DNA of 64,000 nt from Hypomyces perniciosus. Taxonomy: Eukaryota; Ascomycota; Sordariomycetes; Hypocreales; Hypocreaceae. This document shows, one piece after another, positions 13,917 to 22,788 of the stretch. The DNA is taken from assembly GCA_008477525.1 (NCBI GenBank), contig SPDT01000006.1:4553501-4617500 (forward strand). Reading direction: 5' to 3'. Numbering within the stretch: the stretch's first letter is position 1; each line of letters starts with the position of its first letter. Position numbers and translations under genes: made by a program. The notes under the pieces were generated by a model that worked only from the letters and a program-made list of their open reading frames with translations, made no database searches and was not told where the DNA came from.

Positions 13917-16900
13917 CTACTCTTGCCGCAGCTCTTCAAATATGCTCGTCTCCCTACCATGGACCACCATCTCATAAAATGCTCCCTTCTTCTGCCACAG
14001 ATCCCGCGGGTTACCTACCTCCAGGACCTTGCCAGAACCCATCACAACCACCTTATCATAATCCGCAATAGTGCTCAGACGATGTGCGATGGTGATGAGA
14101 CATCGCTCCTTGCCCTCCGCGTCGTCCAACTCGCCTCGCAGGACTTGTTGTATCCCAGCATCTGTCTCAGTGTCCATGCTTGATGTCGCTTCGTCAAGGA
14201 GCATGAGTTTTGATCTGCGTACCAAAATACGGCACAACGATAAGACTTGACGCTGACCGTGAGAGAAGTTGTTACCGCCAGTGTTCACTAGCGTAGAAAG
14301 CGTAAGTCTGCCTCTGAAATGGGTTTCAGATGCCGCGCCTGGAGCGCTCGTTACATCATCATCCCCCGAACTCGACATATCAGATGAGAGGTGGCTAGGA
14401 CTTTGCATCGCTGCGATAGATGCACATGCATCAAGCGCTTTTTGAAGCTGAGGTTCCGGCACAGAGCCAGTAGGGTCGAGATTAGAGGCAATGGTTCCTT
14501 GGAATAGGTGTGCCTCTTGAGGGATTGTTGCAACGGCTTGACGCAACTTCTTGCGAGGAATGGCCGTGATGTCCACACCATCGTAGAGAATCGTGCCGGA
14601 TACGATGTGGGTGAATCGAAGCAGAGATAAAACAAGCTGATGAGCCAATTTGTTAGTCAAGTGTCCCTTAATACGGTTGAAAATGATGAAGGTAAACCGA
14701 CCGTGCTTTTACCACTACCAGTTCTGCCAACAATTGCAACTCGTTCACCAGCGTTGAACGTTAGACTTATGTCTTTCAGAATATTCGGGCCTTCAGGGCT
14801 ATAGCGGACAGTAACATTACGGAATTCAACCCGTCCGCTTCGTGGCCAGTCGGAGGGGATAGTGCGCTCGACATCGTCAAAATACGTCGCAACGTAATCT
14901 TGGCTCTTTTCCGTAACGGGCTCTTCCTCCGGTGCCAGTTTGCAATACTCTGCCACTCGGTGGAAGGCCTGCATTTCAACATTCAACTCATTCACCTCAA
15001 AGACTAGTCGTAGGATGGCATGGCTCATTTCTGATGCTTGGGACAGGGAGAAGCCGACCAAGCCAGCGGACATACTACCCCGATGGGACAGAGCCAACAA
15101 ACCTGCCGAAACATTGATCAGAGCTGCAAGGAAATTGATCCTGAACTTGAGCCATTGGTCACAGTCCCTCTGTGTGGCGCTAGCTTTGGCAGAGGCGTAA
15201 AGCAACCGATGTAGCTTATCGCCAAATACGTGCGGCATGTCGCCCTGTGCTCGGATGACTGCCATGCCCTCCAAGCTCTCAGAGAACTGAGAAAGAACGG
15301 GTGACTGGCTCGATGAGACAAGACGCTTGATGAAGACTATCGTGCGGCTGTACACCTCTCCGATTAAGGCGCCCAGAAGGGACAAGACAGCAACTGGCAC
15401 GATGAAAACAGGTAAGATGGAGGTAACGGCGCCTAGCATCAGTATAGCCTTGATAACTTGATCGAGAAATTCTGTTAGAGGCTCAGCGACATTCTGATCC
15501 AGGCTGTCCATGTCTCCAGACAGACGATTGATGACTCGTCCGACTGGATTCTCTTTGAACCAGGACAGCGACACGTTCATGACGGCCGACACTAATTGGG
15601 AATGAAGTCGCTTCGCTGCGACCCAGCTACCGCGCATGAAGGATAGGAACGCTATTCCTTCCGCAAGTGTGCTTCCGAGGCTAATAGCTACGTACAATCC
15701 CAAGTAGAAAGCTGTGCTATACTCACTATTATCCTGATCGGCCGTGTCCACCCAGCGTGACATCCAGAAGTTGGTCGCGAGCTCTGTAAGGTTATAGAGA
15801 ACCAACGTGGATATAGTCAAAAAGATGGGTATTGGGCCACCAAAGTAAAGCATGTATTTGAAGACTGTCGTGACCAAGTTTAGTAAACGAGTAACTTGGT
15901 GAACATGATGTCAGCAGCAGTAACGACTTACATGACAGGCGACTAGAGATGCTGGTAAGGGCAACCTCTTGGTCTATATCCGTTTCTTCATCATCATCTA
16001 TATCATCCGTGTCGGTGACATCACTTTCACCATTCCGATTGTTTCCGGGGTCACTGATAGGTTTTGGATCGCTGCTATTGTTGTCGATTTCCTCCTGCTC
16101 CTCTTCCGACTGAATTATCCTAGCTTTCCGGACAATACCAATGTTCTGCTCGGCTGACTTAACATGGCCGTTTTCCAACATGATGGCAAGGTCAGCCTCG
16201 GCGGGTAGCCAAATCAACTGTGTTACCAAGACAACCGTTCTGCCCTTGAGGAGATCGGTGCAAAAAACGCGATTCCACAAAGTTACAACCGTCTTGGTGT
16301 CAATGGCTGAGAAGATGTCGTCTAAGAGAAGTAATGAGGACTTGCAGTACAAGGCTCTAGCCAACGCAACCCTGGCCCTCTGTCCACCTGTTGATTACAA
16401 CCGTGAGGGTTAGAAACGATTTATTTCGCCCAGGAGAAAATCGAGGGATGAAACAGCTTACCCGACAGGACTGACCCATTTTCTCCTACATCTGTCTTGT
16501 CACCCTCGGGCAACTCCTCCAAATCCAGGTCAAGGCAACAAGCTTCGACTATTGTTCGGTACCTGTCGGCATCATACAAACCGTTGAATAGGATATTATC
16601 GCGGATAGACTGAGCCTGGAGCCAGGGGCTTTGTGAGGCATAGGTAACATCCCTTGGTCGCGTGACATGACCTGCCTCCTTTATCGTCTCACCGAGGATT
16701 GCCAACAGCAGTGTTGTCTTGCCGCTGCCGCTCAACCCAGTCACAACATTTAGGCCACCGTGAACAAAGTCGATGATCACATCTTCTAGTCGAAACTCAA
16801 CAGTCTTGTTTCTTCGAAACGCAGCTCTTTCAATTCGGAGAGGACCGTCAGGGTAGACGTCCATCGGATTTGTGGCCGCAAAGAACTTATCGAGTCTCCC

Positions 16901-21697: not shown

Positions 21698-22788
21698 ATG
21701 GCTCTCTTATCCAAACATCGGTATTCCTCGCTCCAGCAAGCGGACTCAGTGATGGAAGATGATATGGGCGAGCATATCCTTCATCTTCCCCCGAAGACAA
21801 GGCTCCGCGCGATACTTCTGAAGACCGCTCTCTTCCTCCTGATAGCCGTTACGGGCTTTATCCTGGGTCTTCTAGTGAAAACCAATGGCTATGCTACGAC
21901 AGAAATGACTTGGTGTGAGTTTCTATCTTCGTTTGTATGCTTTATATCCCCGAGGCTCACAGACCAGCAGCTTCCGAGTTGTCCGCCATCAAGGAGACCC
22001 CAACACGTTTCAATGGATCTTTCGAATTTACGAACCGATACCGAGGAAAGCCGTCCCCGCAGATTGATCGCGAATGGGACCGATTCACCGACCATCGTTA
22101 GGCCCCGTCACCCCTATGAACGTTTTGCATAGGTAGCGATGTTAACCATGTAGCACAGCCTTGATCGATGGCACGGCCTCATTGATTGCGGTCAGCGAGG
22201 AAGATATCAAACGTGCCAACAAGACATCTGACGGCGACTGGTTCAATACCACGGTAAAATACGGCGCGATCAATGGTGGTGGATACATGGCGACGTTGGA
22301 ACTATTCCATCAGCTGCACTGCCTGGTAAGAGCCTCATTCCTGGCTGGACTTGAGCGTGGTTTACTTGACAATGAATCTCCAGAACATGTTGCGCAAGGC
22401 CGTTCACAGCGACTATTACGAGGAGATGCGGCCGTTGGGGAACGGTTCTCACTCTCACAGACTCATCACCCATCTCGGTGTGTAACCTGACTGCCATTCG
22501 CTTCCCTTATGTATTCGTGCCGTTTGTTCAATTGAAGCCTCAGATCACTGTATCGAAATCCTTCGACAGGTCATTAGTTGTCATGCGGATACCGGCTTGA
22601 TCACCTTCCACTGGGTGCGAGACAACCCTGTTCCCTATCCCGACTTCAACACGTGGCACCAGTGCAAGAATCCTGAAGAGGTTTTGGCTTGGGCAAAGGC
22701 ACGAGAGGCGCCAATCGGGGCCATGGTAAAGAAGAAACAGTTTCCCGGGTTGGTCGAGATGCCTCATGCCCCCCAAGGAGGGAAGTAA
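21698..22788 (+). CDS. UstYb-like (DUF3328) oxidase
   Basis: The second UstY-family protein of the block. Exons 21698-21914, 21971-22096, 22159-22325, 22384-22477, 22544-22788 (282 aa). A membrane helix lies at about 39-60 (ILLKTALFLLIAVTGFILGL). It is followed by the UstYb-typical TPTRFNGSFEF, RGKPSPQIDREWDRF, GGGYMATLELF, the first motif HQLHC (165-169) and, across the last intron, the second motif HLDHC (200-204) continuing IEILRQ. The C-terminal block CHADTGLITFHWV and YPDFNTWHQCKN is diagnostic of the UstYb branch. The splice joint between exons 2 and 3 (giving DHPLIDG) is the least certain. Together with the UstYa-like gene it completes the a/b pair seen in ustiloxin-type clusters. Confidence 0.93.

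What the first reader, a model, noticed from the sequence alone, without database searches (positions are those of the whole stretch)
13917..22788. Compact candidate RiPP cluster: precursor peptide, UstYa/UstYb pair and ABCC exporter
Seen: a 64-aa predicted secreted peptide with KR sites and Tyr-rich cores, two DUF3328 proteins each with a membrane anchor and two HxxHC motifs, and a full-length ABCC transporter, in 8.9 kb and bordered by a cargo-lectin gene and TIM13. Known: UstYa/UstYb-family proteins build ether or C-C crosslinks in ustiloxin, phomopsin, asperipin and related fungal cyclic peptides, and precursors are secreted and cut by Kex2. Inferred: the four genes form one pathway. It differs from described clusters as there is no tyrosinase, peptidase, methyltransferase or MFS gene in the block, and the core sequences (SYY, FNNFYY) are not ones I recognise.
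Basis: partly seen in the sequence, partly recalled or inferred. Interest (0 to 1): 0.92.

Follow-up and report, generated by a model that had tools for sequence, protein, structure and literature searches.

The report
Small fungal cyclic-peptide gene cluster candidate
A fungal chromosome carries a tiny gene for a secreted peptide beside two enzymes of a family known to cross-link such peptides and a membrane pump, most likely a small pathway for a tyrosine-rich cyclic peptide of a known general kind, but with a very short two-unit precursor that standard searches would pass over.

Summary
Between a lectin gene and TIM13 lie a 64-aa secreted-peptide gene (19592-19288, minus, three exons), two UstYa/DUF3328 genes (Pfam 4e-54 and 5e-39; each with a membrane anchor and two HxxHC motifs) and a full-length ABCC transporter. 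The peptide gene looks real: a splice-aware finder met nothing like it in 5000 shuffles (criteria written after seeing it). It has two diverged units (REEN|DVDEKRKQSYY, RLDN|DVDRSFNNFYY; 7 of 15 identical), each split by a phase-0 intron at the same point. Three other UstY loci of this genome carry Kex2-repeat precursors (NNYPKYG x6, YQW x5, SYLPQ x3). Best reading: a minimal dikaritin-like RiPP pathway making two Tyr-rich peptides, cross-linked by the UstY pair without a linked tyrosinase. Peptide plus UstY pair is well supported; ABCC membership is weaker (ABC exporter genes within 10 kb of 3 of 8 UstY loci, 0.15 expected). Small clusters without tyrosinase or methyltransferase are known (asperipin-2a, epichloecyclins). 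The two-unit, intron-per-unit precursor lies below the three-repeat cut-off of the two published surveys whose criteria I read. Expression, product and sister-genome synteny could not be tested.

The parts
19288..19592 (-). RiPP precursor gene, 64 aa, exons 19592-19485, 19424-19374, 19323-19288; signal-peptide-like start, KR at residues 41-42 and 49-50
   Evidence: Spliced model; found again by an ab initio finder, 0 hits in 5000 shuffles; only copy in the genome
19450..19496 (-). Exon 1 end and its side of unit 1 (REEN before intron 1)
   Evidence: Unit alignment, residues 33-36
19374..19424 (-). Exon 2: DVDEKRKQSYY (rest of unit 1), A, KR and RLDN (start of unit 2)
19288..19323 (-). Exon 3: DVDRSFNNFYY, end of unit 2, core at the stop codon
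20429..21432 (-). UstY-minus, UstYa/DUF3328 protein, 257 aa, HxxHC at residues 151 and 187; exons 21432-21213, 21155-21033, 20970-20846, 20794-20698, 20637-20429
   Evidence: (PF11807, 4.6e-39)
21698..22788 (+). UstY-plus, UstYa/DUF3328 protein, 282 aa, HxxHC at residues 165 and 200; first intron 21915-21970, second intron from 22097 to 22158
   Evidence: (PF11807, 4.3e-54)
21433..21697 (.). 265-bp intergenic stretch between the divergent start codons of the two UstY genes (shared promoter region, inferred)
   Evidence: Gene models; no motif shared with the other promoters above chance
13917..18964 (-). ABCC-type full-length ABC transporter, 1592 aa, exons 18964-18627, 18563-16462, 16387-15932, 15864-14702, 14636-13917; membership in the pathway uncertain
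12326..13105 (-). Left neighbour: Lectin_leg-like (cargo-lectin) gene, frame of its main exon
   Evidence: PF03388, 3.7e-57
23180..23496 (+). Right neighbour: TIM13-like gene (Tim10/DDP zinc finger)
   Evidence: PF02953, 8.7e-20

Best explanation
A minimal dikaritin-like RiPP pathway. The 64-aa precursor enters the secretory route by its signal peptide. The Kex2-type protease, encoded elsewhere in the genome, cuts after residues 42 and 50, giving KQSYYA (after removal of KR by a Kex1-type carboxypeptidase) and LDNDVDRSFNNFYY, whose C-terminal FNNFYY is the likelier second core. The two membrane-anchored UstY proteins, with their HxxHC copper sites in the lumen, act together to make oxidative cross-links at the Tyr (possibly Phe or Asn) side chains. 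The ABCC transporter may move the product across a membrane. Shown here: gene structures, family membership, motifs, the two-unit repeat, co-location, and comparable precursors at three other UstY loci. Inferred: expression, cutting, cross-linking, pairing of the UstY proteins, and the transporter's role.
For: Precursor model with signal-peptide-like start, two KR, Tyr-rich units and introns at the same place in both units; 0 of 5000 shuffles. UstY pair starts 265 bp apart, divergent, and is next to the precursor. UstYa Pfam matches over nearly the whole profile, two HxxHC each; the first motif is invariant and the second at least 90% conserved in the 34-sequence alignment of UstY-plus with 33 of its 83 relatives. 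Same genome: three more UstY loci with Kex2-repeat precursors. One Kex2-type gene in the genome. DUF3328 genes are enriched next to Kex2-repeat genes across fungi (PMC7329392 section 7); CctR shows the motif is a dicopper site in the organelle lumen (PMC12435403, parts 1-2 of 3).
Against: No homologue of the precursor in the protein collection and no sister-genome DNA to test conservation. No transcript or product data. Unit 2 lacks the KR that unit 1 has inside it, so the two units are not processed alike. The signal peptide was judged by a rule of thumb. For UstY-minus the nearest listed relatives do not show the first motif cleanly: P0001 lacks that stretch and P0002 reads HQLHY there, and both have extra residues near the second motif, which may be annotation errors or real loss. 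No shared promoter motif.
Confidence: 0.65

Rival explanations
1. The small gene makes linear Kex2-processed secreted peptides (signal or pheromone-like) that are not substrates of the UstY pair; the UstY enzymes act on another molecule.
For: Most Kex2-repeat genes (6120 of 7878) have no DUF3328 gene nearby and many linear peptides are known (PMC7329392 section 7; PMC9769878 passages). DUF3328 proteins can also act on non-ribosomal peptides (PMC12435403).
Against: The gene lies directly between the UstY-minus and ABCC genes; its units end in Tyr-Tyr; three other UstY loci in the genome pair with Tyr-bearing precursors. Frames of 120 aa or more in the block leave no room for an NRPS or PKS.
Confidence: 0.12
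2. The precursor is a relic or a chance frame: a once longer repeat precursor worn down to two diverged units, or no gene at all.
For: Only two units, 7 of 15 identical; unequal KR sites; no homologue found; donor sites of both introns are not the textbook GTAAGT.
Against: 0 of 5000 shuffles give a like model; both introns have a branch-site-like sequence and equal phase and position in the units; in the shared NDVD the first Asp and Val codons differ without changing the residue; a 59-aa three-unit precursor exists at another UstY locus of this genome.
Confidence: 0.17
3. The ABCC gene is a neighbour and not part of the pathway (compatible with the best explanation for the other three genes).
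For: A product finished in the Golgi lumen needs no plasma-membrane exporter (inference); the two loci with the clearest repeat precursors (C8:2.30 Mb, C23:5.07 Mb) have no listed ABC_membrane gene within 20 kb; no shared promoter motif.
Against: ABC_membrane genes lie within 10 kb of 3 of 8 UstY loci, 0.149 expected under uniform placement, Poisson P 4.9e-4; leaving the window out, P(2 or more) 0.010. At 5 kb only the window qualifies (P 0.087); at 20 kb still three (P 0.0026). The cut-off was set after looking, and uniform placement is a generous null. Transporters occur in known clusters, e.g. aprT.
Confidence: 0.45

Closest known systems
Asperipin-2a cluster (aprA, aprY, aprT, aprR), Aspergillus flavus (PMC6514808 passages)
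   Same: Four genes, no tyrosinase or methyltransferase, a transporter, a secreted precursor with Tyr/Phe-rich core (FYYTGY) and DUF3328 cross-linking
   Different: One DUF3328 protein instead of two; a reductase gene, none seen here; different core; transporter type not compared here
Epichloecyclin cluster (gigA, kexB, DUF3328 gene, unknown gene), Epichloe (PMC7317419 passages)
   Same: Four-gene block with a secreted Kex2-cut precursor and a DUF3328 protein; the gigA product of one strain (CTE) holds two identical epichloecyclin A repeats
   Different: Linked kexin and no transporter named; one DUF3328 protein; 27-residue repeats with other cores. Whether gigA has an intron in each repeat I could not see
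Ustiloxin and phomopsin clusters (UstYa/UstYb, UstQ; PhomA with eight repeats) (PMC6514808 passages)
   Same: Two (or more) DUF3328 proteins with a secreted, KR-bounded precursor
   Different: They have a tyrosinase and many tailoring genes; 16 or 8 repeats against two here
CctR, cyclochlorotine hydroxylase (PMC12435403)
   Same: Membrane anchor plus HxxHC(x)nHxxHC, shown there to be a dicopper site
   Different: Acts on a non-ribosomal peptide and hydroxylates rather than cross-links
Other UstY loci of the same genome (C23:5.07 Mb, C8:2.30 Mb, C4:2.127 Mb)
   Same: UstY genes within about 1-2 kb of a secreted Kex2-type precursor with Tyr-bearing units
   Different: 6, 5 and 3 clear repeats and other cores; introns, where present, lie before the repeats, not inside each unit

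Membership tests
Dikaritin, later definition (DUF3328 protein with two HxxHC as class-defining enzyme; PMC12048977 section 23) | DUF3328 protein with two HxxHC motifs | tested here: met
   Both UstY proteins, PF11807 and two motifs each
Dikaritin | Cross-linked cyclic peptide product | not testable with these tools
   Needs LC-MS/MS and deletions
Dikaritin, original five-part definition (as quoted in PMC12048977) | Precursor with N-terminal leader and repeated core/recognition motifs | tested here: inconclusive
   Leader by rule of thumb; two diverged units, 7 of 15 identical, 29 of 20000 permutations
Dikaritin, original five-part definition (as quoted in PMC12048977) | Tyrosinase in the cluster | tested here: not met
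   Tyrosinase matches only at C22 and C16, unlinked
Dikaritin, original five-part definition (as quoted in PMC12048977) | Methyltransferase in the cluster | tested here: not met
   Frames of 120 aa or more in the block belong to the four genes, bar one unscanned 141-aa frame at the lectin end; no methyltransferase model was run on its own
Dikaritin, original five-part definition (as quoted in PMC12048977) | Several DUF3328 proteins | tested here: met
   Two
Dikaritin, original five-part definition (as quoted in PMC12048977) | Transporter or peptidase | tested here: met
   ABCC transporter adjacent; its role is not shown
Kex2-processed repeat protein (KEP), survey criteria | At least three tandem repeats of at least 8 aa between Kex2 sites (PMC7329392 section 13); minimum of three repeats also in PMC6339444 (passage) | tested here: not met
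   Two units only
Kex2-processed repeat protein (KEP), survey criteria | Signal peptide | tested here: inconclusive
   Hydropathy and cleavage rule only; SignalP not available
DUF3328/UstYa copper oxidase | N-terminal membrane helix and HxxHC(x)nHxxHC | tested here: met
   the model of a 57%-identical relative (P0009) has a long helix at residues 28-59, mean pLDDT 74
DUF3328/UstYa copper oxidase | Two bound coppers, O2-dependent activity | not testable with these tools
   Needs purified protein
ABCC (MRP-type) ABC transporter | Two membrane/nucleotide-binding halves in one chain, closest to MRP/YCF1 proteins | tested here: met
   (both ABC_membrane halves at C23:4568535 and 4570464)

The most novel reading that the evidence does not exclude
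A class of cryptic RiPP precursors: very short, with an intron inside each unit and only two diverged units, each unit giving a different Tyr-rich macrocycle made by a two-protein UstY copper oxidase without tyrosinase. Such precursors escape repeat-based mining and gene callers and could explain UstY clusters that seem to lack a precursor.
Probability: 0.3. Interest if true: 0.65.

Novelty: new variant of a known kind. Interest (0 to 1): 0.47.

Why it matters
If right, it adds an uncharacterised cyclic-peptide pathway with cores around SYY and FNNFYY, and shows that UstY clusters without a visible precursor (a puzzle named in PMC12048977, passages) can hold one that is too short, too diverged and too split by introns for repeat-based searches. 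A practical rule follows: look beside UstY genes for spliced, signal-peptide frames with two KR. With such a search 4 of 8 UstY loci in this one genome gave a candidate precursor.

Tried and rejected
Protein search with the precursor: no candidate sharing three words; no second copy in the genome. Locus-tag test of UstY linkage elsewhere: the two UstY searches hit different species or strains, so it stayed open. Shared promoter motif: none above chance. Foreign base composition: block about 46-52% G+C, flanks about 48-58%, no clear sign. Fold of the closest UstY-plus relative (P0009, alignment of 36): 41 PDB matches at E <= 10, none at E <= 0.001; no solved structure by sequence for the one UstY-plus fragment tried. 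I first counted 8 of 15 identical residues; it is 7, and the permutation figure quoted is for 7. My notebook gives 2127295 as start of the C4 precursor; from the model its second ATG is at 2127249. The first ABCC model broke the frame at intron 1 and was redone. The first finder missed the positive controls and was loosened. The relaxed search also gave membrane-protein models at C7, C4:6.22 Mb and C4:2.09 Mb and nothing at C8:3.06 Mb.
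Full report
What is there. The block 13917-22788 holds four genes between a Lectin_leg-like gene and a Tim10/DDP, TIM13-like gene. Of the frames further out in the window I scanned eight against Pfam: HAT1, LMBR1, a protein kinase, UBA/LysM, CPSF_A, RSE1-type propeller and Mss51 matched, one had no match; 55 non-overlapping frames of 120 aa or more are listed for the window, so most were not scanned. The block looks like a small island among mostly housekeeping-type genes. 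I rebuilt each gene from GT-AG introns: precursor three exons and UstY-plus five, UstY-minus five, ABCC five (after a first attempt that broke the frame).

The precursor. Translation: MKATTALTNVLLFVSASFAIAAPLAVAEGLQLREEN | DVDEKRKQSYYAKRLDN | DVDRSFNNFYY, bars marking phase-0 introns. Units REEN|DVDEKRKQSYY (residues 33-47) and RLDN|DVDRSFNNFYY (50-64) align without gaps at 7 of 15 positions, and the intron falls at the same place in both. In the shared NDVD the Asn and second Asp codons are identical and the first Asp and Val codons differ without changing the residue. This is what a tandem duplication of an intron-containing unit would leave. Permuting the residues after the signal peptide reaches 7 of 15 in 29 of 20000 trials. 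A splice-aware finder returned nothing in 5000 shuffles of the intergenic stretch (the stricter first version likewise). I wrote its criteria after seeing the candidate, so this measures how rare such a model is; it is not an independent test.

Positive controls in the same genome. PF11807 gives 17 exon-level matches in the 44.0-Mb assembly, which I group into 8 loci including the window. Three other loci carry a Kex2-type precursor: C23:5067687-5067223, unit TNNYPKYGTAGDFEAVNDEKVKR or close variants six times; C8:2300527-2300873, five YQW units; C4:2127249-2127483 from its second ATG, SYLPQ three times in 59 aa. The first two came from the main finder; the third only from a relaxed version. 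Two of the three have one intron early, before the repeats; the third has none. So 4 of 8 UstY loci have a candidate precursor; at the other four the relaxed search gave only membrane-protein models or nothing.

The enzymes. Both UstY proteins match UstYa over nearly its whole length, have one hydrophobic segment near the N-terminus with more basic residues before than after it, and two HxxHC motifs. They are only 26% identical to each other, while relatives at 55-65% exist in Akanthomyces, Aphanocladium and Zarea, and at 71-74% over 58% of the length in Purpureocillium. So they are an old pair rather than a recent duplication, though whether the relatives are neighbours could not be tested. 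In the alignment of UstY-plus with 33 of its 83 relatives the first HxxHC is invariant and the second at least 90% conserved, as are Trp108 and two further Cys. For UstY-minus the picture is less clean: of its two closest relatives one lacks the first motif stretch and one reads HQLHY, and both have extra residues near the second; these may be wrong gene models or real loss. In CctR the motif binds two coppers per monomer, and a Trp is needed for activity (PMC12435403, parts 1-2 of 3 read); whether that Trp is the same column I did not test.

The transporter. The ABCC chain is full length and closest among solved structures to MRP1, ABCC2, ABCC3 and YCF1. PF00664 gives 52 exon matches in the genome, which I merged into 32 genes; three of 8 UstY loci have one within 10 kb, 0.149 expected under uniform placement, P 4.9e-4. 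Leaving out the window, two or more has P 0.010; at 5 kb only the window qualifies, P 0.087; at 20 kb three, P 0.0026. One of the two others matches the window ABCC in both halves (C8:3076500-3082500), the other only over the C-terminal part in the 5.5 kb fetched (C4:2134000-2139500). The cut-off was set after looking, and such genes do not lie at random, so I call this suggestive.

How it works, most likely. Signal peptide to the ER; UstY copper enzymes and Kex2 in the secretory lumen; cuts after residues 42 and 50; products KQSYYA and LDNDVDRSFNNFYY or its C-terminal part; oxidative cross-links at Tyr. One Kex2-type P_proprotein match lies on contig C4, and tyrosinase matches only at two unlinked places. 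Order of cutting and cross-linking, bond type and core limits are inferred.

Comparison with the known. The class-defining enzyme feature of dikaritins is met; two of the five original cluster features (tyrosinase, methyltransferase) are not; the repeat feature is borderline (PMC12048977 section 23). The gigA product of Epichloe festucae CTE holds two identical epichloecyclin A repeats, and only epichloecyclin A was found there, so two repeats can suffice. What seems unusual is the diverged two-unit precursor with an intron inside each unit. Both surveys whose criteria I read need three or more repeats (PMC7329392 section 13; PMC6339444 passage) and would pass over it. PMC12048977 (passages) names missing repeat precursors in UstY clusters and suggests a single core. 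My eight literature searches listed no paper that I recognised as describing this cluster; most subscription papers are not held, so this is no proof of absence. Papers were seen as sections or passages as named, PMC7099791 as outline and abstract only.

Verdict. Observation confirmed; interpretation partly supported: strong for precursor plus UstY pair, moderate for the ABCC gene. An uncharacterised variant of a known kind of pathway.

Noticed in passing
L021:5688-5224, minus (G000:C23:5067687-5067223): Kex2-repeat precursor, unit TNNYPKYGTAGDFEAVNDEKVKR six times, about 1.5 kb from UstY exons at C23:5069181; a GNAT acetyltransferase frame nearby (L021:2445-3344).
   Followed up: partly
L016:528-874, plus (G000:C8:2300527-2300873): Kex2-repeat precursor with five YQW units and one early intron, about 1.7 kb from UstY exons at C8:2296929-2298787.
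   Followed up: partly
L025, G000:C4:2127249-2127483, plus: 59-aa precursor with SYLPQ three times and one early intron, about 1.1 kb from a UstY match at C4:2125617-2126102.
   Followed up: partly
L032:495-1852, minus (G000:C4:2134000-2139500): C-terminal part of an ABCC-type transporter with no N-terminal part seen in the 5.5 kb fetched; possibly a remnant, near the SYLPQ locus.
   Followed up: partly
L031:1059-5880, minus (G000:C8:3076500-3082500): ABCC-like transporter, about 7 kb from a UstY match at C8:3070939, at a locus where no precursor was found.
   Followed up: partly
L018:527-1396, plus (G000:C7): Frame with a cellobiose-dehydrogenase cytochrome domain close to the single UstY gene at C7:1080784-1081417, with an MFS frame beyond it.
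   Followed up: no
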